A stretch of 64,000 nucleotides of DNA from Sphaerolaimus hirsutus. Taxonomy: Eukaryota; Nematoda; Chromadorea; Monhysterida; Sphaerolaimidae. The stretch lies in NCBI GenBank assembly GCA_964036195.1, contig OZ038456.1, positions 4,402,001 to 4,466,000 on the forward strand. The letters are read 5' to 3'. Below the pieces are notes generated by a model. That model was not told where the DNA came from. It ran no database searches and saw only the letters and a program-made list of their open reading frames with translations. Positions 1 to 52,544 of the stretch are shown in pieces. Positions within the stretch are counted from its first letter, which is position 1; each line of letters opens with the position of its first letter. The translations under genes and the position numbers were made by a program.

Positions 1-1
1 G

Positions 2-142
2 GTGGAAAAATTCAGAGAGCTGTTTGGCAAGCAGCTAGCGCTCAGTGAGGCTGTACAGCACGCACAGCAAACTGAGGCACCAGTTCAGCAATCGCGCCAG
101 GGATTCGGGAATAATCCTCGCGCACAGCAATTCAATAATTGA
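2..142 (+). CDS. 3' part of BEL/Pao gag, in frame with the downstream polyprotein, ended by a TGA
   Basis: The frame of the large polyprotein is open from the first bases of the window up to a TGA at 140-142, and open again from 143 to 202. The stretch is rich in Gln, Asn, Arg and Gly, as expected for the linker between the Gag capsid part and the zinc knuckles. The beginning of gag and the 5' LTR lie left of the window. The TGA is the only stop in more than 7.7 kb of this frame, so it looks like a recent single-base break or a leaky stop; the sequence alone cannot separate these. Confidence 0.75.
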   Translation: MEKFRELFGKQLALSEAVQHAQQTEAPVQQSRQGFGNNPRAQQFNN

Positions 143-202
143 TTCCAAGGCAATGGGAATCGATTCAGAGGGCCAGAGAACCCAAGGACCAGCACAGGGA
201 GC

Positions 203-3200
203 ATGTCTGTGATCCAGAATGGACAGAGTGCACCACAGGCTGAATTCATGAATCCTGGGAGGCCGTGTGTGTTCTGTAATGACACACAGCAATTACACTT
301 TAATGATAAGTGTCCAAAGTTCAAAACTGCCAGAGAAAGGAGAGTGATTTTGTCAAAGGCAGAGCGATGCCTGAGATGCCTGCAGAAAGGGCATTACATG
401 AATCAATGTCAATTTACGAGAAGTTGCTTCTATTGCAAGTCCAATAGGCACCACACTGCTGTGTGCCCAGAGAAATTTGGTGACAATAGCAATGGAAACG
501 CTGGACGGCAAATTCCAGCATTCAAAGCAAATGGTCAACAGAATGGCCAGCAAGCAGCAAACAATGGCAGAAAGTCTGTGCCGACAGCCGGTCGACCAGC
601 ACAGAGCCAACAGAGAAAGGCCACAGTGAATTGTGTCACTGTGGAAGAAGCTGGACCAGAAATGGTAGAGACAGAAACCATATCCAGCACAGTGGTTACA
701 GAACCAAATACAAAGCAACAGAATACGTCAGTGAACCTGTCAGTAAACAGGAACATGTCAATGTTGATGACAGCCAGAACCGTGATTGAGGCTTCAGAAA
801 TGGATACAGAGATGGAGCCTGAACAGCCACCACTACAGATTCAAGCGTTCCTGGACACAGGATCCCAGGGAACATACATGTCAGAGAAAGTGGCCAGGAA
901 ACTCAACTTGAAGAGTACAGGTGAACACCACATCCAGGTGTACACATTCGGAAATGAAAAGCCGCACTATAAAGTAGTACAGCAAGTGGAATTCAGAATG
1001 CGGCTCAGAAATGGCCAGAAAGTGGAAATGGTGGCAGATGTGGTCCCGACGTTGACCACAGAACAAGTCAAAGTGCCTGTGTCAGAACAGGATGAAAAGT
1101 ACCTGCAGAAGTACTTCCCGGATGAGAGTTACTTTGCAGACAGAATTCCCAAGGAAAAGGGGACAGAGTGCAAGTTCAAGCCAGACATTATAGTGGGCTT
1201 GAATTATTTCTGGGACTTGATGTCCAGAAACACCAGCACCACCAGACTTCCGTCAGGATTGTATGTCATTCCATCAGAATTGGGATTGCTGATGGGAGGT
1301 GGGCAGCTGACGAGCAACAGAAATCAATGGACCACGGATGGTGCATATCCGGTGGTGGTCAACACAATTGTGCATCAAATTCAGAGAGAAAAGTGGTACG
1401 AGGAAGCACCGTTGTCAGTTGCTCCTGTACCAAATGTCAAAGACATGGATAGACTGGATACCATTGGCATAATGGATCAGCCAGACCTCGTCGAGGATGA
1501 TGAGGCCATAAAGCAATTCAATGAGAGTGTACAGAGAAACCCAGATGGACGGTACTCTGTAAAGTTCATGTACAAACCAAATTTGCATGAACTCCCAGAT
1601 AACAAAGCAATGGCGTTCAAGAGGTTCAGGTACCTCACCAACAGGCTCAAGAGAGACCCAGAATTACTGGAGAAAATTCAGGCAATCATGAAAGCACAAG
1701 AGGAGCAAGGAGTGATTGAAAAAGTTCAAGAGGATATTATGGATGGCAGAAAGTTCCATATTTTGCCTCATCAACCAGTGATAACGCCAGAGACAACTAC
1801 CACAAAGGTCAGAGAGGTATATGATGCCTCAGCGAAACCGCCAGGCATGCCAAGCTTGAATGAGTGCATGTACCGCGGTCCAGTGATACTACCACAGCTG
1901 GTAGGGATGCTGATGCGATTCCGGTTGCATGGAATCGCCCTGGTCGCAGACATAGAGAAAGCGTTTCTGCAGATTAGTCTGCAGGACAGTGACAGAGATG
2001 TGACAAGATTTCTGTGGTACAAGGATCCCACGAAACCATCCATGGAGGACAACATTCAGATTTACAGATTTGCCAGAGTACCATTTGGTATAATCTGCAG
2101 CCCAGCGCTGCTGGCGCTGACAGTCAGATACCACCTGAATCAAGCTGGCACAGAAAATGCAAAATTGATCGATGAAAATCTGTATGTGGATAATTTGATC
2201 CTCAGTGTGGACACAGAGCAGAAAGCAATCGAATTGTACCAGGAATCCAAAGTGCTGTTCACAGAGGCACAGATGAATCTGAGAGAATGGAACAGCAACA
2301 ATAAGAACTTTACTTGGCAATTGGCAGAGTCAGATGTAGCCAAGGAAATTGTCACAACAGTCCTAGGAATGAAATGGGACATAGAAAGTGACCAGATGTG
2401 GCTGAAAACGCCAAAGACAGTCCAGAAATCACAATTATCAGAAACTGACCAGAAAATCAAACTTCCCACGAAAAGGACAGTTGCGAAGGTGACTGCGGGA
2501 TGTTTTGATCCAATGGGACTCGTCAGTCCTGTCCTACTGCCAGCAAAGAGATTTTTGCAGACGTTATGGCATTCAGGACCAAGTGCCAAAGAGTGGGATA
2601 CTCCCCTGTCTGAGGAACAGACAGCAATTTGGCAGCAATTGGAGACAGAATTGCTCAAAGTTGGACAGATCAAGTTCAACAGAAACTTGAATTATCAGAG
2701 TGGTGCAGATGCACAACTGCACATTTTCGTTGATGCCTCAGCAATGGCATACAGCGCAGTGGCATACATATGCCAGAAAACAGAAAATGACAGCGGCACG
2801 TCAAGCCTGCTGTACTCCAGATTGAGACTCGCTCCAAAGAAACCAGAAGTGACAATTCCACGGCTGGAATTGTTAGCAATGTTGATCGGCAGCAGAATGT
2901 CAAAGTTTATTCACAAAGAGCTCAAGGATGTCAAATTCAGTCAAACAGTTGTATGGTCAGATTCAACCTGTTGTCTGAAGTGGCTGACAACAGCGAAGCC
3001 ACTGGCATGTTTTGTCAAAAACAGATTGGATGAAATCAGGAAAATTCAGAGTGAGACAGAGAACATGCACATCAGACACATCACAGGACTGGAGAACCCA
3101 GCTGACATGGCCACAAGAGGCATGAATATGTCAGAGTTGGAAGGCAGTAACCTGTGGTGGAAAGGGCCAGAATGGCTAATGACTGGAGAGTGGCCAGAGC

Positions 3201-6200
3201 CGAAAGTGGAGCCAGTTACGCCAGAAGTAATGGCAGAAATCAAGAAAGAAGAACTCAAGTTCCCAAAAGCCAGTCCAATTTACCTGGGCGCCACACAGCA
3301 AGTGGTCAGTGACCCAGATGCCAGCAATGTGCAAGCTGACGAAAGCAAGCAAAGCAACCCATTGGGAATTGAGATTCAGAGATTCTCGTCACTGACAAAG
3401 TTACTGGATTCCACAGTATACGTGATGAGATTTGTGCGACAGATGCACAAAAAGCGCAGCAGAAGTGGCAGTCGGAGTGGACTGTCAGAAATCATGGAAA
3501 GTATCTGTGGTACAATGAAACCACAGGGAATTATCAGCATTGAAGAGAGAGAGATTGCGTTGAAATATTGGATCAAAGTGACGCAACAAAATCATTACAA
3601 AAGAGTGGCAGAGATTCTGGCAACAGGCCACAGCAAAGGCAGCCAGGATGGCAAGAAAGCAGCTGCAGACCAGCAGTTGATCAAATGGCTCAATGTGCAA
3701 ATGCATCAGGATGGAATCCTGAAGTGCCACGGCAGAATGGAGCATACAGACCCACAGGAGGTCACAGTGCCACTCATACTGTTGCCAGCAATGGCTACAG
3801 TGACTCAGCTGATCGTCAGAGACCAGCATGAGAAATTGATGCACGCAGGAGTGCAACACACATTGGCAGCGATCAGACAAAAGTACTGGATTACACAGGG
3901 CAGACGGGTGATCTACAATGTGACCAGAACCTGCCCAACCTGTAAGAAATTGGGAGCGAAGCCGTACCAGCTTCCACCAATGCCAGATTTACCAGAAACC
4001 AGAGTTCAGAGAGCCAGACCGTTCCAGTACACGGGTTTGGATTATTTGGGACCAGTTTGGTACAAAGTGGACAAAGATCACAGGAAAATGTGGATCTGTT
4101 TGTTCACATGTATGGTGACACGTGCAGTTCACCTGGAAAGTGTGCTGGACATGACAGCACAGGAATTCCTGAACGCAATCAGGAGATTCATCGCCAGGCG
4201 TGGAAAGCCTGAGGCAGTGATTTCAGACAATGCGACGCAATTCAAATTGACAGAGAAAGTGCTCAGCACAAGCACTGACAAAGCCATTAATATTGGAAAA
4301 GAATGGTCAGAAATGGTCAAAAGTGGAGCAGTACAGACTTACTGCTCACAGCAACAAATCCAATGGAACATGACTACTCCTATGGCACCATGGCAGGGAG
4401 GAGTCTATGAGAGAATGGTGGGCATCACCAAGAAACATTTCAAGGCAGCTGTGGGGCACAGAATGTTAACCCTGCAAGAATTGTTAACACTTCTGCCAGA
4501 AGTCGAGGCAGTAATCAACAGCAGGCCAATCTCTTACATCTATGGTGATGTGAAGAGCCTCAGAGTGCTGACGCCGAAAGACTTCCTGACAGGGGAAGGT
4601 CAGATTGGAGCACCACAGTTTGACACAGACAAAGATGGAGAATTTGTGCCCAGAATGGATAATGCAGCGAAACTGCAGAAATATTGGGAGACAACCCAGC
4701 AAACTTTGGATAAGTTCTGGGACTTATGGCATCAAGAGTACATTCCGAGCTTGAGGGAAAGAACTCAGGTGACGCACAAACATGGCAGATTGACAGCGAC
4801 TCAAGAACCCAAAGTGAATGAAGTTGTGCTAATTTATGAAGAGAACATGCCCAGAGGTGCATGGAGGATGGGTCGCATCGAGCAGTTAGAGCCCAGCAAA
4901 GATGGACAGATTCGCTCAGCAAAAGTCAGAACTGCCAACAGAAATGTGGTCAGCAGGCCACTCAATCAATTGTATCCGCTGGAAATCAATTCAAAGACAA
5001 TGGATATCCCAGAGACAGCAGTGACAGTCAAAGTGGATTTATTGGACCCAGCAATTGTCCAGAAATATGTCAGAAATCAGAGCTCGAACAAAGACTCTGT
5101 ACCAAACCCTGCTCAGAGGAACTCAGCATCGGATAGAGTCCTGAGGAGTGCAACAGGGAAAGCCACAGCAACCACCAGCAGTCTGGTGATTGGAATGCTG
5201 TGTATGGTGTTGATGCTGACAGGCATGTCAGAGTCAGCAACGCTGAGAGAAGCCGGCAAAGCTTACAGCGAAGTATTTTCCAGAACATACGTTCTAGAAA
5301 CCTCGACAGTAAGGCCACTATCATTGGCAGCGCATCATGGATTGCCGCCTTTGCCTTCAGAATGGCCGCCAAAGTCTGTCAGAGAGATGCAGACTTATGA
5401 GAGATTCAAAGACGCAATCAAGGATCATCCTGTGGAACAGGTGATCAGTTCACAAAGCCAGAAGTACCAAATTTGTACCAGTGGAAGGCATGGACATGCA
5501 CTTACAGTTCCTGAAGAAGTGCAGTGCCATATCCCACCAAGGAATTTTGTCAAGGCAATGAAAGTTACACTTTACGCACAGAGACAGATTCCACAGAAAG
5601 AAAAAGCATACAGATGCTACATCAGAATCAAAGAAATCATCACACACACCAGTTTCTGGGGAGCGAAAGGCATTACAGGCAATTTTGAGAAATACCAGCA
5701 AGTTGGCGTGGTAGCCTGTAACTATGCAAGAATTCACAAGATGTTCAGAGGAACACCTTTAGTGGAAATGGAGCCCAGAGTGTGGACAACCAATCAAACC
5801 TTGAATGTGGAATATTCATGGTGTTGTCATGACAAAGAAAATGTCGTCAGTAACTTCTACATGGAAGAAGGAACCGTGGCTTCACTCGATGGAAAGACTG
5901 TAATCAGCGACTTGCAAGATTTCAGCCAGTGCAGAGCCATGATGGGACATTGCAGAGACCACAACTATGGAATCACAGTGTGGGATACGGAGAATTTCAA
6001 GCATCAATGTGCATATGAAAGAATTGGCAGATTCAAATCAGAGATATCTGGCCAGACAATTATTGTATCAAAATTGCAAGCAGCATACTCCCACAGCAAC
6101 AAGACAAAGAGGCCAATTGGTTCAGAATGTGTTCCGGGAGACACATACTACACCGATCAAGGAGGGGTATTCATCCAGTTTGACAGAAGAGAAGATGTGC

Positions 6201-7720
6201 CTGTAGAATGGGCAATGCCAGGAAAGATAGTGGAGGCAAGAGAGTCGACAATCAGTGGAACATTGTATGCCAGATTGGACGACAGAAACTCCAAGTTTCA
6301 GTTCCTGCAACATGTAGTCAGAGAGATGACTCAGGCACAATTTGCGATTGTATGGCATCAATTATGTCAACTTCGCAAGAACCAGCTGGACATGTTGACT
6401 CAGCTTTTCCGCATCGATCCAACACTGGGGATTCGAGCCATGCTGGGAAGACAGGATGTTCATGCAGAATGGGCTGGAGAAGCAATTATGTTTTGGGAAT
6501 GCAAGGAAGTGCAGCCATACATAATTTATCAAACAGGAAAAGTGGGAGAGACATGCTACAAATACACACCAATGAGATTGGACAAAGACGGGCCCTTGTG
6601 GTTCAAGAGCCCAGGCAGCAGAGACTTGGTGGAGAAATCACCAGAAGAGGACTGCAGCCACACTACACCGCACCTGTACAGAAATGAACATGGACAGTGG
6701 AAGTCCGCACATGGAATGGTGCATGTCACAGAGACTCCAATTGAAATGACATGGAAAGGACAATGGCAGGCCTTCACGTTTGATGCGCCTCACCTGTTCA
6801 CCAACATTGTCAACAGAGCGACTAATTTCATGGATGTCAGAGGCCAGATTCAGAGACTACAGAATTTGGAGCATGTGCAGAACCAGTTGATCGATTACAC
6901 GGCAGATATGTCATTGGATCCCAGAGTGATCAGAAATTCAATAGAAGGCATTGGAGCTGGAATTGGACAAACAGCAGCAGGAATCGGCAAAGCATATGGT
7001 CATTATATATCTGGAGTATCAAAAGGGTACACCAACTTTATGGGAGGAATGCTGAAAGGACCCTTTCAAGTGATCATCAACACAATCGCAATGCTGCTGG
7101 GGATCACAATCCTGATAGCCGGAATTGTAGCTGCAGGATACCTGTGGTACAATTGGAGAATTGCCACAGGGAAACCAGTGATTCCACCATGCGTATACAC
7201 ATGCATATGGAAATGCATAGTGTGTCCATTCAAGTGCATATGGCTATGCTTCAGAGCCATCAGATACACTATCAAGAAGTCAACTCAGAAAGAGACCAAT
7301 TACCCACAGAGGAAAGTACGCAAAACAGAGTTGAGACCAGCAATCAAGAGAAGAGCCAGATCCAATTCAACACAGTCCGTCAGATTTGCCAGGAGAGCAG
7401 AAACAGAGGACAGAATGGCAAAGTCACTATCAGCATACGTTCAACCAGATGAAAGTTCAGCTGATGAAGGACAAGTCAGAGCCAGGAACAGAGACAGTGT
7501 TCACATGCCCGATATCCGCAAATTCACCTCACGCGAACGCGCAGGAAGCGACACGGGCAACTACCTGCTTCATCATCAGGCTAGGTCGGCGTTGGCATCA
7601 CCAACAACCGGACCTGCAACTTCACGCACACCCACGACTTCGCGCACGACCACGTTCACCACCGAGGCGACTGTGGAAACGCCACTCATCACTTTGGCGC
7701 CCACCACCACCAGCATGTGA
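203..7720 (+). CDS. BEL/Pao retroelement polyprotein: zinc knuckles, protease, RT, RNase H, integrase, envelope-like
   Basis: One 2505-codon frame. Three CCHC zinc knuckles lie at residues 22-37, 56-69 and 75-88 (first spacing CX2CX6HX4C, then CX2CX4HX4C twice). An aspartic protease motif DTGS is at 218-221. The reverse transcriptase has its first catalytic Asp at 583 and the box YVDN at 661-664, the BEL/Pao form of YxDD. The RNase H has Asp844, Glu889 and Asp920. The integrase has a zinc-binding N-terminus and a DDE triad at Asp1280, Asp1342 and Glu1403, followed by the BEL/Pao-type C-terminal domain (DUF5641-like, about 1490-1595). An envelope-like part follows without any stop (separate entry). 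Protease-RT-RNase H-integrase order and the YVDN box place it in BEL/Pao. The ATG at 203 is only the first Met after the TGA at 140; the native frame starts upstream of the window. All catalytic residues I could check are present, so this is a young copy. Confidence 0.93.
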   Translation: MSVIQNGQSAPQAEFMNPGRPCVFCNDTQQLHFNDKCPKFKTARERRVILSKAERCLRCLQKGHYMNQCQFTRSCFYCKSNRHHTAVCPEKFGDNSNGNAGRQIPAFKANGQQNGQQAANNGRKSVPTAGRPAQSQQRKATVNCVTVEEAGPEMVETETISSTVVTEPNTKQQNTSVNLSVNRNMSMLMTARTVIEASEMDTEMEPEQPPLQIQAFLDTGSQGTYMSEKVARKLNLKSTGEHHIQVYTFGNEKPHYKVVQQVEFRMRLRNGQKVEMVADVVPTLTTEQVKVPVSEQDEKYLQKYFPDESYFADRIPKEKGTECKFKPDIIVGLNYFWDLMSRNTSTTRLPSGLYVIPSELGLLMGGGQLTSNRNQWTTDGAYPVVVNTIVHQIQREKWYEEAPLSVAPVPNVKDMDRLDTIGIMDQPDLVEDDEAIKQFNESVQRNPDGRYSVKFMYKPNLHELPDNKAMAFKRFRYLTNRLKRDPELLEKIQAIMKAQEEQGVIEKVQEDIMDGRKFHILPHQPVITPETTTTKVREVYDASAKPPGMPSLNECMYRGPVILPQLVGMLMRFRLHGIALVADIEKAFLQISLQDSDRDVTRFLWYKDPTKPSMEDNIQIYRFARVPFGIICSPALLALTVRYHLNQAGTENAKLIDENLYVDNLILSVDTEQKAIELYQESKVLFTEAQMNLREWNSNNKNFTWQLAESDVAKEIVTTVLGMKWDIESDQMWLKTPKTVQKSQLSETDQKIKLPTKRTVAKVTAGCFDPMGLVSPVLLPAKRFLQTLWHSGPSAKEWDTPLSEEQTAIWQQLETELLKVGQIKFNRNLNYQSGADAQLHIFVDASAMAYSAVAYICQKTENDSGTSSLLYSRLRLAPKKPEVTIPRLELLAMLIGSRMSKFIHKELKDVKFSQTVVWSDSTCCLKWLTTAKPLACFVKNRLDEIRKIQSETENMHIRHITGLENPADMATRGMNMSELEGSNLWWKGPEWLMTGEWPEPKVEPVTPEVMAEIKKEELKFPKASPIYLGATQQVVSDPDASNVQADESKQSNPLGIEIQRFSSLTKLLDSTVYVMRFVRQMHKKRSRSGSRSGLSEIMESICGTMKPQGIISIEEREIALKYWIKVTQQNHYKRVAEILATGHSKGSQDGKKAAADQQLIKWLNVQMHQDGILKCHGRMEHTDPQEVTVPLILLPAMATVTQLIVRDQHEKLMHAGVQHTLAAIRQKYWITQGRRVIYNVTRTCPTCKKLGAKPYQLPPMPDLPETRVQRARPFQYTGLDYLGPVWYKVDKDHRKMWICLFTCMVTRAVHLESVLDMTAQEFLNAIRRFIARRGKPEAVISDNATQFKLTEKVLSTSTDKAINIGKEWSEMVKSGAVQTYCSQQQIQWNMTTPMAPWQGGVYERMVGITKKHFKAAVGHRMLTLQELLTLLPEVEAVINSRPISYIYGDVKSLRVLTPKDFLTGEGQIGAPQFDTDKDGEFVPRMDNAAKLQKYWETTQQTLDKFWDLWHQEYIPSLRERTQVTHKHGRLTATQEPKVNEVVLIYEENMPRGAWRMGRIEQLEPSKDGQIRSAKVRTANRNVVSRPLNQLYPLEINSKTMDIPETAVTVKVDLLDPAIVQKYVRNQSSNKDSVPNPAQRNSASDRVLRSATGKATATTSSLVIGMLCMVLMLTGMSESATLREAGKAYSEVFSRTYVLETSTVRPLSLAAHHGLPPLPSEWPPKSVREMQTYERFKDAIKDHPVEQVISSQSQKYQICTSGRHGHALTVPEEVQCHIPPRNFVKAMKVTLYAQRQIPQKEKAYRCYIRIKEIITHTSFWGAKGITGNFEKYQQVGVVACNYARIHKMFRGTPLVEMEPRVWTTNQTLNVEYSWCCHDKENVVSNFYMEEGTVASLDGKTVISDLQDFSQCRAMMGHCRDHNYGITVWDTENFKHQCAYERIGRFKSEISGQTIIVSKLQAAYSHSNKTKRPIGSECVPGDTYYTDQGGVFIQFDRREDVPVEWAMPGKIVEARESTISGTLYARLDDRNSKFQFLQHVVREMTQAQFAIVWHQLCQLRKNQLDMLTQLFRIDPTLGIRAMLGRQDVHAEWAGEAIMFWECKEVQPYIIYQTGKVGETCYKYTPMRLDKDGPLWFKSPGSRDLVEKSPEEDCSHTTPHLYRNEHGQWKSAHGMVHVTETPIEMTWKGQWQAFTFDAPHLFTNIVNRATNFMDVRGQIQRLQNLEHVQNQLIDYTADMSLDPRVIRNSIEGIGAGIGQTAAGIGKAYGHYISGVSKGYTNFMGGMLKGPFQVIINTIAMLLGITILIAGIVAAGYLWYNWRIATGKPVIPPCVYTCIWKCIVCPFKCIWLCFRAIRYTIKKSTQKETNYPQRKVRKTELRPAIKRRARSNSTQSVRFARRAETEDRMAKSLSAYVQPDESSADEGQVRARNRDSVHMPDIRKFTSRERAGSDTGNYLLHHQARSALASPTTGPATSRTPTTSRTTTFTTEATVETPLITLAPTTTSM
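5165..7720 (+). other. Envelope-like module fused to pol of the BEL/Pao element
   Basis: After the integrase the same frame runs into a hydrophobic segment at residues 1659-1676 (possible internal signal peptide). A Cys-rich ectodomain follows with potential N-glycosylation sites, then a Gly-rich stretch at 2247-2287, a strong membrane anchor at 2290-2318 and a cytoplasmic tail of about 190 residues with basic, Ser-rich and Thr-rich parts. This order is that of a type I viral fusion or attachment glycoprotein. The second BEL/Pao element (24969-29520) has a shortened relative with the same start, Gly-rich stretch and anchor. BEL/Pao elements are known to have captured glycoproteins from several virus groups; I cannot tell which group from the sequence. 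Confidence 0.7.
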
Positions 7721-7807
7721 CGTTGCTGCAACAACGGGGTGCAGCAACTCTTCCGCCCGGAGTGTGCTGACCGTAGCAAAATGGATGGATAAAGAAATAC
7801 AGAGAAT

Positions 7808-9053
7808 TGATAATTAGGCTCATATTTGCACATTTACTTATTTGCACTAATTTACAATTTATGCACTATATTAATTTACCACGCAAATTGTATTTCCTGC
7901 ACTATATTATTTACCCATGGAGAATATTCGATTAGGAAAGTGTTCTATAAGTTATTGATAGGTTTATGTGGAATGTTTAGGTTAAAAGGTCAAATATGTT
8001 ATTATTAGGTGTATTAATATAAAATTAGGCTCATTCAACTCGCCGTAATTTTCTGATCATGATTATACATACATTTGCATAGTTTACTTGCAGTTTACAA
8101 AAGTCAAATCTTGTAAATATTTACGTGCTGCGTAATTATCTAGGCCAGCGTCCTAATAGAGAAATGGTGCCCTGCGTACAACTAGCATTTACTTTACAAA
8201 GCCCTTCGCATAGGTATAATTGTTTAACCCTGTCCACAACTTATATTTATATTTACTTAATAATTATAATACTTTGCTCAAGCTGAATATATTATAGACC
8301 CTGCTCAATTAATATACCCATTTACCTCGAATAAGTCCCAATTTGCCAATTATGAAATATACGTTTCCAGGAAGTGATTATTATTATATCGAATATACCC
8401 TGCTCTATTTATGTCATTAGGAACATTTACACTACTATTTACAATTTCAAACCCTATTTTATTAGTTCCAATGTGCGTCAATGTTTTCTGACAAATTGGA
8501 ACAAATTAGTAAATCGGCCGAGTTTGCCGACTTCGCGCCTCTCAAGATTAATAGTTTTCTATTAACCCAATTTGTACCTGGTATTTCTTTACCATAAGTA
8601 TTTGAATGTATGCACGCATAGAATAAGCCAACTGTTTCTATCAAATGTGTCTTATTGCTATATTAGTGGTTTATTTGTGCATTTGTATTAGGAAATTACT
8701 GTAACTGTTTTTCTATACATGATTTCCGTGTCTTAGCTACTTTGGAAGTTTTTATTTCAGTCTGCGGACCCCAAGCTACTGAACGAAAATAAGCTAGCGA
8801 TAGAAACTTCGACTAGGAAGCTCGCTAGGCTTTGCGCTTTTGTAACACGCTGTATCTGATCGAAATAAAGTACCTGAAACAATTCGAACCCCCTTTTCAA
8901 CACACAACTACGAAATAAACTCAACTTGGCTGTCGACAAGTGGACGTTCGGCTACAACGGGAAATCAACCACTCTAAAGGCCGTTTCTCACTACGGTCTT
9001 GGAGCTGCTGGATTCGGTGGTAGAAGACGCTGACTTCGGTGGCTTCATCACAA
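7808..9053 (+). repeat. Candidate 3' LTR of the first BEL/Pao element
   Basis: The polyprotein ends at 7720. A purine-rich stretch (about 7790-7806) then precedes TGATAATTAGGCTCAT at 7808, which resembles the start of the LTR of the other BEL/Pao element (TGTGAAAATTTAGGCAT, complement of 29520 downward). A polyadenylation signal AATAAA occurs on the plus strand near 8865 and another near 8913. The end TCATCACA at 9053 fits a CA terminus; past it a different repeat begins. The 5' LTR is outside the window, so the limits cannot be proven by comparison. The part 8586-9053 recurs inverted at 33868-34310. Confidence 0.5.
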
Positions 9054-9427
9054 GGGGAGTTATTTTTTTCATCAGACGTTTTGGAGGGGGAGTTATTCAA
9101 GGGTGGAGTTATTATTTCCTCAGGAAACTTGGACTTTAATCATTGTATGGATGCAGTATGTAAACTTGTTTAATTCAGGTATTTCACTGTCCAATAACAA
9201 CAAAACAATGTGTATACACTGCATACACATTATGTATCTGCTGTCACTGTCATAGGCTACTATTCTTTTATAGTTTTGCATTGTATCCTTTTCATCATAG
9301 GGAGGAGTTTTTGACAGGGGGGAGTTATTCAAGGGGGAGTTATTTTCTCCTCACCCCGCCAGCAGGCAGGGGGGACTTATTCAAGGGGGAGTGATTTGAG
9401 GGGGGTCTTATTTGAGGATTTGCGGTA
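9054..9427. repeat. Family A TA-duplicating element, right end only
   Basis: G-rich blocks of the type GGGGAGTTATTC alternate with AT-rich sequence, and the right end reads ATTTGCGGTA, a diverged form of the CCGTA terminus. The left terminus is missing where it meets the LTR end at 9053. Confidence 0.55.
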
Positions 9428-9568
9428 CCTATATATGTTGACCCAGGAACATATATGGGAGCTTTAAAAAAAAACGTTTTATTTAAATAACAATAACATT
9501 TTAGTTAAAAAACAACGTTTTTTAAAGAAAAAACATGGCGTAACAAAAAACGTTTTTTTCCAACCCTA
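9428..9568. repeat. Family B (hAT-like) element, right part
   Basis: Shares the ATATATGTTGACCC core, the run of AAACG/CGTTT blocks and the CCAACCCTA terminus (ending at 9568) with the full copies at 16514-18239 and 20694-21331. Its left part is absent. Confidence 0.6.
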
Positions 9569-10029
9569 GTCTGAGCTGTAATAAAGACATAAAACGTTGA
9601 GTTGCAAGTTCAATTAAGTTTTGAATAAAAAAATTTCCAAAAAAAATCGAAAACTATTTAAAAAATTCGAGAACTACCCAAATTTTTTTCGAAAACTGGC
9701 AAAAAAATTCGAAAACTACCTAAATTTAAAATGAAATATTTGGCAGATAGTCCACCTTTGAGACCACGCACAATCTAGATAATGGATCGCAAATCCCATC
9801 TGTGCATCAATACGTTGTAGGACAGATACAGTTTCCAAGCTAGACAATTGAAAAACCACGAACTTGGACTAGTGCCAAGGGACGCCAACTAGTTGGCACT
9901 CTGCCAAAGACTCCAAGCGCCGTTCTAGCAAGCCACTAGCAACGGGAGACAAGCGCGAAAGAGGAAAACTAACTCGAAGCCATATCAGCCATGGCGAGGA
10001 CAAGCAGCGCAGCGCGCACAGCACGGCAA

Positions 10030-24248: not shown

Positions 24249-24968
24249 GTGGACGACGTGTGGCCAGGGCACCACAGGAATTTGTTGATGAACCTTTGGA
24301 TTTAACGTTGGTTAGCGATCAGAATGCGCATGCGTGTGAAAATGTGGCTGGGTTTTTGAACGTAGTTGAAACTGTCGACAGGCAGGGTCGGGACAGACCT
24401 GTTCCAGCAGTTATGTACCAGTTTGTGAAATCACGTACACCTGCTCCTTGTGGTGTAGTTGATAGGTGTCATTTACCAGTGTATTTAGCGCCTGTGCTTC
24501 CAGTGTGCACTTTAATGCCACACGACGTGAACAATTATTTACTTGAAACGGAATCCTTGATGAGGGATGGGAGCCAGAATCACGCTACGAATCCCAATGT
24601 TTCATTCATTTCACATGTTCCAAATTTTGAAGCTCCTATTAGTTCGAGCAGGACCCAAAATGACAACACTGCACAGTTGACACATGAATTAAACCTGTCG
24701 CAGGAATGTTTTCGAGCTTTGCAGGTACAGCACAGACATTTGGCAGCCTTGATGGCCATGACACCGTCAATAAGCACTGCCACTAACATTGTCAAACCGG
24801 TGACACCTGTGGAACTTCTACACCCCAAAATCAACCAACCGTTAACAGGGCTATCAATATTTCTACCATTCAATCGCCGCTGGAAAATGATCCCTGGTCT
24901 ATCAAGGATTTTACTAAATTGCCAGGGGCTACTACAGCCGTAAAAACTAATTTGTTACAACTAATCAC
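24249..24968 (+). pseudogene. Ty3/Gypsy gag, middle segment (2 of 3)
   Basis: The gag frame resumes at 24249 and stays open to a TAA at 24941-24943. A frame change near 24860-24880 is needed to keep a protein-like reading, which then runs to the BEL/Pao insertion at 24968 and on, in register, at 29527. So one small indel plus two large insertions break this gene. Motifs typical of Gypsy gag before the capsid domain (DPWS and TKLPG-like words) appear in the shifted frame. Confidence 0.6.
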
Positions 24969-25752
24969 AGAATGTCATCTCCCTGGATAACACAATGCTG
25001 TTTATAGTTGACCAGTTGTTGTCCAGACACATTCTGACCACTTTGCACCAATGTGACTTCACCCTCTGCTGCATTATAATGAACTGTAGGTCCCAGTTTG
25101 CTGAGTTCCCTCTGAGAACCATTATCCACCTCTGACTCTGTTTTGGCTTTGCTTTAACTGTCCTTGTTGTCATGTTGATACAAAATCCAAACAGCTTGAT
25201 GATTGCCCTGAAGCATGTTCCAAATGCTTTCATTGGTAACAATGGAAGTCCCTTGCTCACTCTGTATGTCCCATACATGTACAGTCCATATCCAATTAGA
25301 AATATTGCCCCTCCAATGATCAGTAAGTTCAGCATGAACTGCACTGGTCCTTTTAAGATTCCATTGCACATTGAATTGCTGCCACTCAGTGTCCCTTTGA
25401 CAATGTGACCAATCTCTTTGCCAACTCCCTCATAAAATCCTCCAATTCCTTGACCAACTCCAGCTATTGAATTCTTGATGACAGCTGGATCCAGTTCCCA
25501 GCTGGCTGTGTAATCTGTCAATTTCTTTGTCATGTGCTCTAGTTTTTGTGCCCATAAATTGACTTCCTGTTTCATCACTTTGTCTGTGACAGGAAATTTG
25601 CAGTGTATCTTGTCTGGTATTGAAATTGCATGCCCATTTTTTGCCTTTGTGCACAGGTTAAACGGTTTGCTGTATTTTTGCTGCCAATTGGTTGTTGCTT
25701 TTGCACCAGACATAATCACTGATATGATTGTCAACACCTGCAATCCTACCAT
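24965..25752 (-). pseudogene. Envelope-like gene with the ectodomain deleted
   Basis: Starts with a hydrophobic leader (residues 1-18), keeps the first conserved block (Cys34 to Cys51), then jumps at about residue 70 (nucleotide 25543) straight to the region before the Gly-rich stretch (96-125) and the membrane anchor (about 136-161). Compared with the first element, almost all of the ectodomain, roughly 450 residues, is missing and the frame is kept across the join. Near the 3' end a frame change is needed: one frame ends at 24961-24963, the more protein-like one ends in TGA at 24967-24965. Upstream, an in-frame TGA at 25833-25831 separates it from the integrase frame, whereas the first element has no stop there. 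Confidence 0.75.
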
Positions 25753-25830
25753 GAAGAAATCTGCATATGTCTGCTGTCTCCTGGCTGCCCTGTGTGGATT
25801 CTTTCTTATGTCTTGTGGTGCTGGTTTGTT

Positions 25831-27633
25831 TCATGGATTCTGTGGATCACCATGTTCAACTGTTTGAGCTTTTTCTGGCCATTGTCCATCATAGTCTTGC
25901 ACTTCTAATGGACACAGGTGGACAACTGGTCTCTCAATGTGTTTTCCACTTCTCAGTTGTACTTCTGCACTTCTGATCCATCCATCCTTGCTTCTGTTCA
26001 ATTTCTGAATCCTTCCTAGTTTCCATGCACCTCTTGGTAAATTCTGCTCTTTGATCAGTACCACTGCACCAACTTTGGGTTCTGCTGTGACATCTCTATT
26101 GCTTTGTTTCCCAAAGTTGTATCTTTGTCTGAGCATATCCAGATACAGCTTCTGCCATAACTGCCATAATTTCTCCTTCTTCTGTTGAATTGCATCCCAA
26201 ATTTCTGTCATTTTTTGTTTTTCATTTTTTGCCCCCAGCAGAAAATCCATTGGCCTCAGGACTTGAAGTGTGTCCATTGTATCACCCACATATGTTAGTG
26301 GTCTGCAGTTTGACACCCTTTCCACCTCTAAGACCATTGTGCTGAGTTCCATCCAGCTCAACAGTGGGTTGTAATTTGCTGCCTGGGCTTTCCTCATGAG
26401 TTGTTTAATAATCCCCACAATTCTCTCATACACTCCACCTTGCCATGGTGCAAATTGAGTTATGAAGTTCCATTGTATGTTTGGCAGATTCCTGGCCAAT
26501 TGTCTGAATTGTGGTGCATTGTCCAACCAGATTTTGTGTGGTGTATTCCTTCTGCTTTCAAATCTGGAGAATGCCATCTGAGTTTCTGCAGCTGTCATAT
26601 TTGGCACAAGCTCCAAGTTTGCAGCTCTTGTGCTGAGGCATGTCATCAGGCGGACATATGCCTTTTTGCTTGCTTTCTGCCCTGCATCATTCACTACTTG
26701 ATACCATAATGGGCCAAAGTAATCCATACCTACATGGTGAAATGGCCTATGCAACTCTGCCCTTTCCTGTGGCAGTGTTCCATACACAGGTTGTTTGTAT
26801 GGCCTTCCTGTGACTTTTCTGCACACCACACAATGTTTGATTATGTTGTGTGTCATGACTCTGCCTCTGTGGATCCAAAAACTTTCCCTGAGCTCTGCCA
26901 ATGTGTGTGCTACTCCAGCATGCATCACACTTCTGTGGTAATGTTCAATGATCAACTTTGTGATGCATCCTTTCTGTGGCAGCAGATATAATTCCTGATT
27001 GCCATCCATGTCAGGAATCCTAGTTATCACTTTGACAATCCCTTTGACACTGTCAAATTTCATTTCTTTGCCAGTGATGCTCAAATCTTTCTGGAAGGGC
27101 ACATTCTGCTTTTGTGCCTCCTTGATCTGTTTTATCTGATCTGCCAATTGCATTTGTTGTGCCACTCTAACCAAGTACTCAGTAGCTGCATGCCATTCAC
27201 TTTCCATGAATGGTGCCTTCTTGGTGTTCAGAGTGATATCTTGACATGCTGATTTCTTCTGATTTTTCAGATATGCTACAAATCTCATCACTCTGATTGT
27301 GGCCCTGAGTAAGTTGTCCCATTTTGAGAACCTCTTTGGATCAATCTGGTAGTGATTCTCTGTTTCTGCTATGAAATCCTTTGTTTCTGACTCTTGTTGT
27401 GTTGTCATTCCAACCCAGATTGATGATTTTGGCATGATGAACTCGTGTTCAATCTCTGGTTTCAAATTTGGTGGCACTAATTCACTCTCTGGTTGAAAAT
27501 CTGGTGGCAACTCTATTTTGAAACCCATTGGTCCCGTCCACCAAATCTCTTTTTGTTGAAGCTCTTGCAGATCACATCCTCTGGAAGCAATGTCAGCTGG
27601 GTTGTCTGCTGTGTCAATTTTGTTGACCTGCAC
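25831..27633 (-). CDS. BEL/Pao integrase with end of the RNase H region
   Basis: 600 codons. It opens with DNPADIASRGC (residues 11-21), the conserved block just after RNase H in BEL/Pao. Next come the integrase zinc-binding region (HAGVAHT and paired Cys) and the catalytic core with Asp in GMDYFGP, Asp in WLDNAPQF and Glu in GGVYERIVG, all present. The BEL/Pao C-terminal domain (RGAWKLGRI, then VVHLCPLE) ends shortly before the TGA at 25831-25833. The same domains occur in the first element. The frame is undamaged although RT is absent. The first Met is only the first in the open frame after the deletion. Confidence 0.88.
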   Translation of the reverse strand: MQVNKIDTADNPADIASRGCDLQELQQKEIWWTGPMGFKIELPPDFQPESELVPPNLKPEIEHEFIMPKSSIWVGMTTQQESETKDFIAETENHYQIDPKRFSKWDNLLRATIRVMRFVAYLKNQKKSACQDITLNTKKAPFMESEWHAATEYLVRVAQQMQLADQIKQIKEAQKQNVPFQKDLSITGKEMKFDSVKGIVKVITRIPDMDGNQELYLLPQKGCITKLIIEHYHRSVMHAGVAHTLAELRESFWIHRGRVMTHNIIKHCVVCRKVTGRPYKQPVYGTLPQERAELHRPFHHVGMDYFGPLWYQVVNDAGQKASKKAYVRLMTCLSTRAANLELVPNMTAAETQMAFSRFESRRNTPHKIWLDNAPQFRQLARNLPNIQWNFITQFAPWQGGVYERIVGIIKQLMRKAQAANYNPLLSWMELSTMVLEVERVSNCRPLTYVGDTMDTLQVLRPMDFLLGAKNEKQKMTEIWDAIQQKKEKLWQLWQKLYLDMLRQRYNFGKQSNRDVTAEPKVGAVVLIKEQNLPRGAWKLGRIQKLNRSKDGWIRSAEVQLRSGKHIERPVVHLCPLEVQDYDGQWPEKAQTVEHGDPQNP

Positions 27634-27754
27634 ATTTGTCTCAGCTTGGATGGCTTGAATCTAATGTCTAACATATTTGATGGGCTCTAATGTCCTTGAC
27701 CACTTGATCTGATTGACTTGTTTCTGCAATTCTTTTATTTCTGCAAACTTCTGA

Positions 27755-28800
27755 TTATAGGTCTCTGGTACTTCTGTTTCCCATTCTAATTGACCTTTTG
27801 GATCTGATCATCTCAACTGTTGCATAATTGTTCATGTCTTCATTCTGAGATCTGAGTTGGTACACCAGTGACTGCACTTCTCTGTGAAAACTCTGCAAGC
27901 TTTTGTAATGTCCTTTTGGCTCTGGTACTAGCTGGAGTTTTGCATACAATCTTCTTTTAATGTCTCTTGCTTTTCCATATTGCTTTTGCAGGATCTCAAT
28001 TGCCAATTCATAATTGCCCTCAACTACCCTGATTCCTTTGATGGCATCAAATGCCTCCCCAGCCACATATTTCAGCAGGTACTGGAACTTTGTGATCACT
28101 GCCATATCTGTCCTTTTGTGTATCACTTGCTCATATGATTGCCACCAAGCATCCCACTGGATGACATCACCAGTAAAGTCCCTCAACTCTAACTTAGGCA
28201 ACTTGGCTTCCACCAACCTTGGTGTTGTCCTCTGTGTTGTATTTGGTTGACCCTGGCCAACTGTGGTTGTTGCTGGGTTGGAGTTGTGTAGCTGAGAGAA
28301 TGAGCTTGTCCCTGTGCCAGTGACTTTTTGCAGGTATTCTTCCAGTGACTGAATACCAATGTTCAATCCAATGACTTTGTCTTCTAGCTGTTGAATCAGG
28401 TTCAAGTGTCCTTCTGCACTTTCCAAGTGTTCTGTGTATTTCTGTTCTTCTTCACTCAGAATGGATTGGGATTCATTCATGCCCAGATTTGAAAGAGCCT
28501 CTAAATTTGTCAGAACATTCCTCCATTCTATGTCTCTCTCTGATTAGCCATAACCACTCTGGTTTGTTTGGCATTTGACACATTTTCATGAGTGGCACTC
28601 TCTTTCACATGTGTGAAAACTGGTGCCACCTCTGCCAACAGAGTCTTTGCATGTTTCCTCTGTTGTCCCAAAACCCTTCGAATTGAACCAGAACCCACTA
28701 ACTGTGGAACTGCAGTGCCATTCTCTGACTGTGCCATGATTCCAGTTGCTGGCTGCGCCATGTTGTTATTGGTGTGGTCAGTGGTGGGTATTTTCTCCAT
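27755..28800 (-). pseudogene. BEL/Pao gag, frameshifted and cut at the 3' end
   Basis: Gag starts at ATG 28800 a short distance after the LTR. A first frame ends near 28528; the main part continues in another frame from 28480 to 27755. It has a coiled-coil-like Glu/Gln-rich start, then LPKLELRDFTGD and the block QWDAWWQSYEQ, typical of the DUF1759 gag family of BEL/Pao. The gag C-terminus, zinc knuckles, protease, RT and most of RNase H are deleted between about 27755 and 27660, where the sequence resumes in the RNase H-integrase linker. Confidence 0.82.
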
Positions 28801-30376: not shown

Positions 30377-33300
30377 GGATGCCAGTCATAGGCAAGGTGG
30401 CGTGCATGCAGGACATGCAGCATGTGCAGGAAATGCAACGCGTGGCGGCGGACACGGACGACAATTCTAAATGTAATGAAAACGCCGATAATGAATCCGG
30501 TAATGACAGATTGGAACTTTATTGTACCGAATTCCGCCACCGGCTGGCAGCTACCCTTAATGCAGCAGACCCCGGTTCGTTAAATAATTGGGACAGACAT
30601 TTTTGGTAGAAATTGCATACTTTCTGCCCACCGCAGAAATCGATGCGAATGTCAACGAGCACGTTCTTGAATTTCTCGGCAGCGATTTCCCTGGCACGGC
30701 CGATTCTGTTCCATGAATCACAGCAAAGAGATTCAATCAGTGAATCTAATGATTGTGTACCCGTTACGTTGGAAAATAATATTATTAGTTTGCACACGGC
30801 TCAGATTGAGAATTTGTTCAGAATGGAAAAAATAGGTGAAACACATGCCTACACTTGCATAGGGGAAACGTTTGGCGGTGAGAATCGAAAAAACCAATGG
30901 CCCGCAAATTTTTGCTCATGTCAACATCGGAAATATTCCTACAAAAGTTGTTTTAGACACAGGCTGTACTAGAACCATTGTTCCAATTCAATTGCTACAA
31001 GAAATCAAAGCAAAGTCAAACTTAGATATAGATAAATTTCTGCGCCCTACAGACATGTTAAATGGGAAAACGTCCACGGGCACAATGTTTGAAATGCCCC
31101 TGTTCATGGAACACACATCCCCAATTTACAATGTACGACGCAAAGTAGTGGTGGTGTAGTGGTGGCATTAATTAACATGGATGACAAAGCAATGCCAGAA
31201 GTCTTGATAGGAACGGATGTCATGTCATTCCTTAAGTTGTCTTGGCTAGTTCCACTCACTCTAGAAAACCGAACAGAAATCACGCCGACAAAAGATGCTG
31301 CAACACAATGTCAATTCACAGATTTAGAGGAAAAATTTACAGAAAATTATGTGGAAAAAGTGTATTTGAAGAAAAAATTGTATGTGCCAGCTAAAGGTAC
31401 TGCTCAGGTGGCTATCACACATTCCCAAAAACCCTCAGGAATGACCCGCAATGATAGGAAAACTAGTTCCGCACTATATTCAAATGTAGGGGTGGAATTA
31501 CCAACAGAATTGGCTATGTACAACACGACTGCTTCTCTAAACACAACCAAACAAGCTTATTTGACCTAACACGGCTATGTTCAACAGCGGGGATTCACCG
31601 ATATTATTGCCAAAGGGTCACCAGGTAGCCACCGTTCAGGTGATCGAGAATAAAGATTTATTCAAGCCCAGCAAAAATTTTGGGAAAATTCTACAGAAGG
31701 CGGAGCATTCGGAAATTTTCGGGGCAACTTTAGAAGTGAATCATACTTGCATGAAGGCGATTGCTATACCAAAACCACTGGACATGATTGACTCTGTGCC
31801 AAGTGCCGCTAAGACAAAAGAAGAATGCTTGGACTTTATACTAGCCAATCTACCGAACAAAGATAGGATTACACTTTCAAACACTCAATCTGAAACATTT
31901 CAAATCGCAGAATTCCATGATATATTTTCATGCACTGAATATGACGTTGGCAACACACCACTTGTGTCCCATGTCATATTAACAGATCCTAAACATCCTC
32001 CAATCAAGCAAGCACCCTGATACGAACCTACACTCAAAAGAGAATTCATTCACAAAGCTAAAAATCAATGCTGCAAGAAGGGATAATTGAGCATTCTGAT
32101 GGCCCATGGGCGTCACCGATTACCATTGCCCCCAAAGGTGCTAATGATTGGCGCTTTTGCGTTGATTTTAAAATGGTAAATTTAATAACCAAAATTGACT
32201 CCTACCCACTGCCCAGAATCGGAGAAATTTTGGCAGAATTTGCAGGGCGCAAAGTGTTTACACCCATTGACATTCGCCATGGGTACTACAACGTAGCCCT
32301 CGCCGACAAGGACACGATGGAGAAAACGTCATTTGTGTGTAGCATAGGGCAATATCGCTACACTAGGCTCCCGTTCGGTACAGTGAATGCTAGAGCGACT
32401 TTCCAACGTCTCATGAATATAATGCTGGTCGATTTAAATGAGAATTTGTTCCGCACATGGATACGGGCATACATTGATGACATTTTGTGCTGCTCAGACA
32501 CAGTTGATGAACATTTAGGCCACTTGCGGAGGTTATTTTTGCGCCTATGCTGGGCGAACTTGCGCATGCAACCTAAAAAGTGCGATATTTTTGCCAGCAC
32601 TCTCAAATATCTTGGACACCAGATAAGTGCAGCGGGCATTTCACCCACACCTTCCAGAGTTGAGGCCATGACATCACTGCTGAAGGTGCACACCAAGCAA
32701 GAATTGCGCTGATTTTTGGGACAATGTGTCTATTATTCACACTTCATTCCTAGTTACAGTAGGATTTTTGCACGGCTTTATGCCGTATTAAAAGGAAAAA
32801 TTCCAAAACACGGCGAAACACCATTTGACTGGACAGAAGAAATGTTGGACGCGTGGGCCACTCTGAAGTATTGCATAGCATCACCACCGATTTTGGTACA
32901 TCCTGTCCGTAATACTAAACCATTCTAGACATCTAGAAACTGACGCTAGCGCCACAGGATTAGGTGCAGTTTTGTCACAATACGGTGAAGATGGTTTATT
33001 GCACCCACAATCTTTCATTTCCAAGCGCCTCACACATCCACATAATACTTTTTCGGCTGCAGAGTTGGAAGCGTTGTGTACTGCTTGGGCGGTGCACCGG
33101 TTGGCCTGATTTTGTAGAAGGCCAGCGACTAATTGTCATTACCGATAACTCAGGTATACACCAGGTGCTCAAGACACCGTTACATTCAAAACTTGAACGT
33201 TGGTTGATCTGGTTACAGGATAAAATAATCGAATTTGTCCACAGGCCAGGAAAGTTGAATATGGTTGCCGACGGTTTATCGCGAAATCCGATTACTGAGC

Positions 33301-33867
33301 CTGAATTCGGAAATGATGGATTGACTGAGGGAGTCGACCTAGTGAAAGGAATGGCTGCACACATGATCCAAACCGGGGCAAATTTTTCAGGTGACACTCA
33401 TCTCCAAAAAAACAGTTGCACTATCACATGACATCAATTGGCATGAAATCCAGAAAAATGTCCTGAAAGACCCTGAATTGTCTACCATAATTAGCCAATT
33501 AGTTGCTGATCCTCAAAGCATCCCACATGCAGTGCTAATTGATGAATTATTGTACTACCAAGTGGTAAGAAATTCCAATGAATATGCGATTTGGCCACCC
33601 AAAACATGGCAGGATGCATGTTTGGCTCAAGTGCACCTCGGGATATATGCAAGCCATGGCGTGCCAAAACGCACGATAGAACTACTTTGTCATTACTTTT
33701 CATGGCCGGGCTTGAAAAATGATGTTCCCAAATTTTGTGCAAACTGTACAAATTGTTTACAATTTTAAAAACACAGACTACATCCTGGCCCATTGGGAGC
33801 TGTAGAGACCCCCTCTCAGCCATTCGAAGTTTTACACATAGATACAATGCAATTGGAACATGACAAT
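30377..33867 (+). pseudogene. Ty3/Gypsy pol (protease, RT, RNase H, integrase start), multiply broken
   Basis: Protease: VVLDTGCTRTIVP within 30872-31159 and VLIGTDVM soon after. RT: 32068-32712 with RFCVDFKMVN, RLPFGTVNA and the catalytic YIDD at 32470-32481. Connection region 32713-32925, separated from RT by an in-frame TGA at 32710-32712. RNase H starts in another frame with TDAS at about 32939. Integrase zinc finger at about 33620-33770, followed by TAA and then VLHIDTM at about 33830, the first catalytic Asp region. At least five breaks: frame changes before 30872, near 31155 and 31570, the TGA at 32710 and further shifts in RNase H. The integrase core stops at 33867 where the LTR-like sequence begins. 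Confidence 0.88.
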
Positions 33868-52189: not shown

Positions 52190-52344
52190 TCAAGCGGGGG
52201 TTGATTCAAGAGGGGGGTTATAATTTTGTCAGAAATTCTAGCAAAGGACAACAGTCAAGATATGTGGCAAACAGGTTATATTTGTACATGTATACATAGG
52301 GTTGGAAAAAAACGATTTTTAACAACCTCTATTTAAAAAAATCT
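52190..52344. repeat. Family A remnant and left end of a family B copy
   Basis: GCGGGGGTTGATTCAAGAGG (52195-52214) is family A-like. TAGGGTTGGAAAAAAACG (from 52299) is a family B left end that runs into the assembly gap. Confidence 0.55.
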
Positions 52345-52544
52345 NNNNNNNNNNNNNNNNNNNNNNNNNNNNNNNNNNNNNNNNNNNNNNNNNNNNNNNN
52401 NNNNNNNNNNNNNNNNNNNNNNNNNNNNNNNNNNNNNNNNNNNNNNNNNNNNNNNNNNNNNNNNNNNNNNNNNNNNNNNNNNNNNNNNNNNNNNNNNNNN
52501 NNNNNNNNNNNNNNNNNNNNNNNNNNNNNNNNNNNNNNNNNNNN
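52345..52544. other. Assembly gap, 200 N
   Basis: Exactly 200 unknown bases, a typical placeholder, so the real distance is not known. The sequences on its two sides (family B left end, LINE RT) are unrelated. Confidence 0.98.

What the first reader, a model, noticed from the sequence alone, without database searches (positions are those of the whole stretch)
2..7720. Nearly intact BEL/Pao element with pol and an envelope-like glycoprotein in a single frame
One frame of 2505 codons carries zinc knuckles, protease, RT, RNase H, integrase and a full glycoprotein with signal, ectodomain, Gly-rich stretch and membrane anchor. Envelope genes of retroelements are usually a separate, spliced frame; a direct fusion without stop is unusual. 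The catalytic residues I checked are all there, so the copy is young and the family may be active or infectious-like.
Basis: partly seen in the sequence, partly recalled or inferred. Interest (0 to 1): 0.75.

Follow-up and report, generated by a model that had tools for sequence, protein, structure and literature searches.

The report
Active retroelement with fused envelope protein
A virus-like jumping gene in an animal genome carries its core, enzymes and a membrane-fusion envelope protein in one continuous reading frame; several fresh copies and strong conservation of the envelope suggest that it has spread recently and still uses that envelope, but this kind of fused layout was already known from worms and flies.

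Summary
Window 203-7720 is one 2505-codon frame with zinc knuckles, protease, RT, RNase H, integrase and a class-III (gB/mononegavirus-type) fusion glycoprotein. It is a BEL/Pao element of 12,554 bp with identical 1290-bp LTRs and a 5-bp target duplication. The fusion is a family trait: of 110 copies ranked by Gag, 75 lie in frames long enough to run from gag to the end of env, and more distant relatives join pol and env too. Env is under purifying selection (66 silent, 8 replacement differences in three copies not chosen by Env). Eight other LTR pairs differ at 0-5 sites. So the family was recently active and Env matters to it. Corrections: in this copy an in-frame TGA (140-142) cuts Gag off; the RT motif is YVDN; single-frame Gag-Pol-Env is already known in BEL/Pao (roo, Atlas virus), as is a chuvirus-type Env (Anakin). 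New member of a known kind. The same genome also holds Burro-like giants with env between gag and pol in frames up to 6806 codons.

The parts
2..142 (+).
   Evidence: gag carries DUF1759 3.4e-33
203..7720 (+). 2505-codon ORF: knuckles-PR-RT-RH-IN-ENV; frame open from 143
266..427 (+). two Cys/His zinc-knuckle-like motifs
845..1306 (+). aspartic protease, DUF1758, LDTGS
1928..2281 (+). reverse transcriptase; active-site motif YVDN at 2183-2194
2468..2965 (+). Peptidase_A17 domain (BEL/Pao marker) overlapping RNase H
3803..4417 (+). integrase: HHCC 3827-3943, GLDY 4034, SDNA 4223, GGVYER 4397
4682..4981 (+). DUF5641, after the integrase core
4992..5158 (+). linker between integrase and Env, little amino-acid constraint yet open in frame
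5159..5236 (+). internal signal-peptide-like hydrophobic segment of Env
5237..7072 (+). Env ectodomain, class III (gB/Monjiviricetes-type); PF24664 match 6287-7018; Gly-rich stretch from 6938
7073..7129 (+). membrane anchor of Env
7163..7720 (+). tail and stop: Cys-rich hydrophobic stretch at 7193, then basic and Ser/Thr-rich
7763..9052 (+). 3' LTR, 1290 bp, identical to the 5' LTR
9053..9057 (+). target-site duplication AGGGG (also directly before the 5' LTR)
24961..28480 (-). remnant of a second, diverged BEL/Pao element with Env remnant in the frame of integrase, an in-frame stop at 25833-25831 and most of the ectodomain missing

Best explanation
This is one provirus of a recently active BEL/Pao (Belpaoviridae-type) family whose Gag, protease, RT, RNase H, integrase and a class-III fusion glycoprotein are one frame. 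Shown: layout, LTRs, target duplication, young copies, a continuous frame in most of the ranked copies, purifying selection on Env. Inferred: the full-length RNA is translated into one polyprotein; when the internal hydrophobic segment (5159-5236) emerges it sends the ribosome to the ER, the ectodomain enters the lumen, and signal peptidase and/or the element's protease separate Gag-Pol (cytosolic side) from Env, which is anchored at 7073-7129 and put on particles that can pass between cells or individuals. Confidence 0.9 for identity and selection, about 0.55 for translation of Env from the full-length frame rather than from a spliced RNA. The copy in the window has Gag cut off by a stop; copies with an uninterrupted frame exist.
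For: Domains by piece; identical 1290-bp LTRs and AGGGG duplication; 8 other LTR pairs with 0-5 mismatches, 5-bp duplication in all 6 of the 8 that could be read (one pair aligned over 892 bp only); 75 of 110 Gag-ranked rows and 51 of 79 Env-ranked rows in frames of 2880 codons or more (the two lists share loci); Env core in 3 Gag-ranked copies: 66 silent, 8 replacement distinct differences, ratio 0.031 against 3.37 and 2.87 in the two shifted frames; ectodomain N-part, outside the search query, 0.11 in 40 copies; relatives with pol and env in one frame: family 2 (56-85% identical by piece), P0003 (50%), P0004 (44-45%; its DUF5641 end scores under the cut-off), P0008 (29%, one 2277-aa protein with Peptidase_A17 over, RVT_1 under its cut-off, and PF24664); linker length differs between the focal family and family 2 (93 and 94 residues between fixed points) and is in frame in both.
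Against: No RNA or protein data, so expression and particles are not shown. The 0.00 ratio first seen for the Env core in 40 copies is ascertainment, because they had been ranked by that very protein; only the 3 Gag-ranked copies and the segments outside the query count, and these 3 were chosen with open frames. The open linker is weak evidence by itself: 0 stops among 45 linker variants where 1.7 were expected (P 0.17), 0 of 72 where 2.8 were expected with the signal included (P 0.06). The protein database returned only 6 distinct relatives in three searches, two of them (P0006, P0007) with no pol domain and unknown context, one (P0005) with gag but not pol. The in-window remnant has a stop between integrase and Env.
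Confidence: 0.8

Rival explanations
1. Env is made from a spliced subgenomic RNA whose last exon happens to share the frame of pol, as for CERV of Cer1; the continuous frame is then incidental or serves a minor product.
For: Cer1: one 2272-residue frame, yet CERV comes from a five-exon mRNA with exon 5 in the polyprotein frame (PMC10309623, passages). In-frame ATGs at 5195-5225 could start a short signal; AG at 5115-5116 is invariant in 40 copies; a fair donor (TGG|GTAAGA, score 7.5) lies in the leader; two acceptor-like sites inside integrase (4396, 4499) are among the 12 best-scoring of the ORF.
Against: No acceptor between 5000 and 5236 is among the 12 best-scoring of the ORF (crude scoring). 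The frame between integrase and Env is kept in five lineages (focal, family 2, P0003, P0004, P0008) although a splice would not need it.
Confidence: 0.35
2. The glycoprotein is a passenger, carried along but without function.
For: Many copies have shortened frames: 35 of 110 Gag-ranked rows are below 2880 codons. ICTV calls the function of belpaovirid env-like genes unknown (PMC8742986, whole text).
Against: Replacement/silent ratio 0.031 in the Env core (3 copies) and 0.11 in its N-part (40 copies); many columns, cysteines among them, invariant between proteins 32-42% identical overall.
Confidence: 0.05
3. The fused frame is an assembly artefact or a one-off deletion of a stop.
For: None found.
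Against: Frames of at least 2880 codons in 75 of 110 Gag-ranked copies on many contigs, the same order in family 2 and joined domains in proteins from other public contigs.
Confidence: 0.01

Closest known systems
Atlas virus, hookworm Belpaoviridae (PMC9094657; passages)
   Same: Belpaoviridae, identical LTRs, one Gag-Pol-Env frame (2828 residues), RT motif YVDN
   Different: Env there is class II, phlebovirus Gc-like; here it is class III, gB/Monjiviricetes-type
roo of Drosophila (PMC3087523; passages)
   Same: BEL/Pao with gag, pol and env in one ORF
   Different: Env of another origin (passage: Gypsy); element 9092 bp with 428/429-bp LTRs, here 12,554 bp with 1290-bp LTRs
Anakin, mosquito Pao with chuvirus glycoprotein (PMC7642597; passages)
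   Same: BEL/Pao with a chuvirus-type glycoprotein, highly similar LTRs
   Different: Mosquito hosts; the passages I saw do not say whether Env shares the frame of pol. Direct sequence comparison not made
Burro, planarian giant Ty3/gypsy element (PMC6431247; passages)
   Same: Layout of the giants found in this genome: gag, then env, then pol in one very long frame; Burro env also resembles mononegavirus fusion glycoproteins
   Different: Focal element is BEL/Pao with env after pol. The giants here reach 6806 codons and show no BIR, MATH, BCL2 or ankyrin domain at E 0.01 in the pieces scanned
Cer1 of C. elegans (PMC10309623; passages)
   Same: Single polyprotein frame with an extra 3' coding part
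   Different: Ty3/gypsy-type; the 3' part does not resemble retroviral Env and is made by splicing

Membership tests
Belpaoviridae (BEL/Pao) | Pao-type domains (DUF1759 Gag, DUF1758, Peptidase_A17, DUF5641) and Pol order PR-RT-RH-IN | tested here: met
Belpaoviridae (BEL/Pao) | LTRs TG...CA with a short target duplication | tested here: met
   TGTGCTGA...CATCACA; 5 bp in the focal copy and in all 6 readable of 8 others
Belpaoviridae (BEL/Pao) | LTR 0.2-1.2 kb and genome 4.2-10 kb (descriptive range in PMC8742986, whole text) | tested here: not met
   LTR 1.29 kb, element 12.55 kb; a described range, not a criterion
Belpaoviridae (BEL/Pao) | primer-binding site for tRNA-Arg or tRNA-Gly | tested here: inconclusive
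   TGGCGCAGCGAGCAGGG follows the 5' LTR; cognate tRNA not identified
Belpaoviridae (BEL/Pao) | place in an RT tree | not tested
   no reference RTs were fetched
Class III fusion glycoprotein (gB / Monjiviricetes) | profile match | tested here: met
   PF24664 5.5e-15, over its cut-off; a profile of 10 relatives matches solved chains 9cu4 (named ORF8, a gammaherpesvirus gB as I recall, 3.4e-07) and 8y48 (glycoprotein B, 1.2e-06)
Class III fusion glycoprotein (gB / Monjiviricetes) | three-dimensional fold | tested here: inconclusive
   AlphaFold2 model with 5 sequences has mean pLDDT 41.5; not searched further
Anakin (mosquito Pao plus chuvirus G) | place in the Pao branch and mosquito host | not tested
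   no Anakin sequence was compared. At least 11 contigs of 24-34 Mb do not look like a mosquito karyotype (n=3, recalled)
Errantivirus (Ty3/gypsy with env) | Ty3-type pol | tested here: not met
   Peptidase_A17, DUF1759 and DUF5641 mark BEL/Pao
Burro (for the giants elsewhere in the genome) | gag-env-pol in one giant frame between LTRs | tested here: met
   C1 element: 6806-codon frame, identical 628-bp LTRs, duplication CACT; of Gag only the zinc knuckle was found there, Retrotrans_gag in the C13 one
Burro (for the giants elsewhere in the genome) | accessory BIR, MATH, BCL2-like, ankyrin domains | tested here: not met
   none at E 0.01 in the C1 frame (5 pieces) and in 3 pieces each of C13 (4930 of 5824 codons) and C7 (4834 of 5073); sensitivity is that of Pfam, not of HHpred as used in the paper

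The most novel reading that the evidence does not exclude
Two unrelated retroelement superfamilies in one animal, BEL/Pao (env after pol) and Burro-like Ty3 (env between gag and pol), have each merged a gB-type fusogen into one continuous frame and both have very recent insertions. In both layouts the parts fall on the right side of a membrane if one polyprotein is threaded through the ER (Gag and Pol in the cytosol, Env in the lumen). The bold reading is that the entire virion proteome is made as a single membrane-threaded polyprotein, as in flaviviruses and alphaviruses, with Gag-Pol left tethered to the membrane by the signal segment, so that assembly and Env pick-up are coupled by translation rather than by splicing.
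Probability: 0.25. Interest if true: 0.7.

Novelty: new member of a known kind. Interest (0 to 1): 0.42.

Why it matters
It joins two known facts: single-frame Gag-Pol-Env in BEL/Pao (roo, Atlas) and capture of a chuvirus-type fusogen (Anakin). It adds a measurement: Env is strongly conserved across copies of a recently inserting family, which argues that the envelope is used in the replication cycle. In the parts I saw (first of five parts and passages), a 2023 survey (PMC10084718) found no clear capture of such glycoproteins by retrotransposons in insects outside mosquito Pao, so a probably non-mosquito host with many young copies would widen the picture and give a system where polyprotein versus spliced expression of a retroelement envelope can be tested directly.

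Tried and rejected
Rejected: 'fusion is unusual' (roo, Atlas); 'all catalytic residues canonical' (YVDN); the Env-core ratio of 0.00 in 40 copies, an ascertainment artefact, replaced by Gag-ranked copies. Led nowhere: search of viral contigs with Env, no match; AlphaFold2 model too poor to use; Rfam on the window, 0; splice-site scoring undecided; 2A-like motif (N[PS]GP) in the ORF, none, and no R-x-K/R-R site in the Env piece. Host name: COX1 on contig C762 holds 14 TGA codons, read as Trp, and is followed directly by an atp6-like frame (gene named from memory); TTAGGG telomere pattern 0 matches (simple repeats may be skipped); the TTAGG search never got an answer; paper searches for the assembly size and for bryozoans gave no match to 348.48 Mb. 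Host left unnamed. The DNA search of the junction over the genome was not repeated.
Full report
What is there. The window begins inside a provirus. The frame 203-7720 (2505 codons) carries, by Pfam on six overlapping pieces, an aspartic protease (845-1306), RVT_1 (1928-2281), Peptidase_A17 (2468-2965), integrase (H2C2 3803-3949; rve 4064-4387, just under its cut-off), DUF5641 (4682-4981) and a Monjiviricetes fusion glycoprotein (PF24664, 6287-7018, 5.5e-15). Two zinc-knuckle-like motifs lie at 266-427. The other five frames hold 73 to 131 stops. Peptidase_A17, DUF5641 and, upstream, DUF1759 in Gag (3.4e-33) mark BEL/Pao. The RT motif is YVDN, not YxDD.

The rest of the element. The host assembly (348.48 Mb, 762 contigs; the window is C9:4402001-4466000) gives the missing 5' part. 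Gag starts at C9:4401018 in the same frame and in this copy ends at a TGA at window 140-142. The LTRs (C9:4398499-4399788 and window 7763-9052) are 1290 bp and identical; the one mismatch and one gap of the alignment fall in the bases just outside. Both sides carry AGGGG. The element is 12,554 bp. So this insertion is very young, yet its Gag is cut off by a stop; copies with an uninterrupted frame exist elsewhere.

Is the fused frame real? A genome search with the Env core gave 79 scored matches (of 1904 first-look candidates, so a capped list), none with a stop inside, 51 of 79 in frames of 2880 codons or more. That search ranks by Env identity, so I repeated it with Gag: 110 scored (of 1379 candidates), 75 of 110 with frames of 2880 or more, long enough to run from gag to the end of env; the remaining 35 are shorter. 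The two lists share loci. In the 40 copies read across the junction no in-frame stop lies between 4803 and 7153; three later stops occur in two copies by whole codons, four in three copies when single changes are scored alone, and one copy (L026) lacks part of the tail. Family 2 of the same genome (L052-L054, 56-85% identical by piece) has the same order in one frame, with another linker length. Of six distinct database relatives in three searches, P0003 has integrase, DUF5641 and Env in one ORF, P0004 has what looks like the DUF5641 end (under the cut-off) and Env, and P0008 (29% identical) has RVT_1 (under the cut-off), Peptidase_A17 and Env in one 2277-residue protein. P0005 has a Ty3-type gag directly before Env, and P0006 and P0007 show Env only. 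A diverged remnant in this window (24961-28480, minus strand) has Env in the frame of integrase but with a stop between (25833-25831) and most of the ectodomain missing; it is the one counter-example that I saw and is visibly decayed.

Is Env used? In three copies chosen by Gag rank (L073-L075; chosen with open frames; three of eight first asked for), the Env core differs from the focal copy by 31-41 silent and 2-3 replacement changes; distinct sites 66 and 8, ratio 0.031. Codon positions of the differences are 7, 2, 65; in the two shifted frames the ratio is 3.37 and 2.87. In 40 Env-ranked copies (of 79) the segments outside the query give 0.18 for the integrase end, 0.55 for the linker (0.58 and 0.62 in shifted frames, so hardly any amino-acid constraint), 0.30 for the signal, 0.11 for the N-part of the ectodomain and 0.22 for the tail (which overlaps the query end not at all); the 0.00 of the core there is ascertainment and is not used. 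These are simple counts without correction for multiple hits. Copies differ by roughly 10% at silent sites while eight LTR pairs differ at 0-5 positions, so separate sublineages have replicated under selection on Env and inserted recently.

What Env is. PF24664 covers fusion glycoproteins of mononegavirus-like viruses, and a profile of ten relatives (with Envs of family 2 and of the giants) matches solved glycoprotein B chains (3.4e-07 for a chain named ORF8, a gammaherpesvirus gB as I recall; 1.2e-06 for one named glycoprotein B), so class III is the best call. The fold itself could not be modelled (pLDDT 41.5).

How it probably works. Shown: one frame, internal hydrophobic segment at 5162, ectodomain, anchor at 7073. 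Inferred: translation of the full-length RNA, ER targeting at the internal signal, release of Env by signal peptidase or the element's protease. The rival is a spliced Env RNA in the same frame, as in Cer1; my crude splice scoring decides nothing, and the lack of stops in the linker is weak by itself (P 0.17 for the linker alone, 0.06 with the signal). That five lineages keep the frame is the better argument.

What is known. roo: one 7083-nt ORF with gag, pol and env (PMC3087523, passages). [quoted passage not shown] Anakin: Pao with chuvirus glycoprotein in mosquitoes (PMC7642597, passages). Mosquito BEL and gypsy with type III fusion glycoproteins (PMC13172572, passages). The layout and the kind of Env are each known; their explicit combination in one frame did not turn up in what I read, and I do not claim it is unpublished, since Anakin's frame was not stated in the passages. 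Paper searches.

Beyond the finding. PF24664 in the genome also lies in frames of 5000-6800 codons. One, on C1 minus strand 17097600-17077183, is a 6806-codon frame with a zinc knuckle, then PF24664, then protease, RT, RNase H and integrase, between identical 628-bp LTRs with a CACT duplication, 24,147 bp in all. A search with its Env gave 101 scored rows (of 1427 candidates), 59 of them full-length at 51% identity or more, 27 of 59 in frames of 5000 codons or more, in three groups: 2, 40 and 17 rows at 100, 53-55 and 51-52% identity, with 2, 18 and 7 such frames. This is the gag-env-pol layout described for Burro in planarians (4873- and 5140-residue ORFs; PMC6431247, passages), here without Burro's accessory domains in the pieces scanned. 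It is a new set of Burro-like elements rather than a new kind.

Noticed in passing
host contig C1:17074470-17098616 and others (L044-L049, L055-L061): Burro-like giant Ty3-type elements: zinc knuckle (Retrotrans_gag in the C13 one), env (PF24664), protease, RT, RNase H, integrase in one frame of up to 6806 codons, LTRs identical in the one tested, 27 of 59 full-length Env matches in frames of at least 5000 codons. Between the zinc knuckle and the Env match lie about 2700 (C13) to 3700 (C1) residues with no Pfam match over its cut-off.
   Followed up: partly
window 24961-28480, minus strand: Second, decayed BEL/Pao element (integrase 38% identical to the focal one) with an Env remnant lacking most of the ectodomain.
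   Followed up: partly
host contig C7:2970003-2978450 as read (L052-L054): Second BEL/Pao family with a 2900-codon frame, same order and Env 75-80% identical to the focal one.
   Followed up: partly
window 1-8000: The coding strand is strongly A-rich (AT skew 0.20-0.27 against 0.005 in 8001-10000), as in lentiviruses (recalled).
   Followed up: no
window 9035-9412: The insertion sits at an array of GGGGAGTTATT-like repeats, and its duplication AGGGG is part of that repeat.
   Followed up: no
host contig C15:23632633, 23658437, 23684240: Three gag copies with equal scores and frames (434 codons), spaced about 25.8 kb apart: possibly a tandem duplication holding a broken copy.
   Followed up: no
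P0005 (database protein, 1056 aa): Ty3-type Gag with zinc knuckle fused directly to a class III Env, possibly a small gag-env-pol relative of the giants.
   Followed up: no
window 32068-33431 and 52333-54768: Remnants with RVT_1 and a weak RNase H match, and a LINE-like 811-codon ORF with endonuclease and RT.
   Followed up: no
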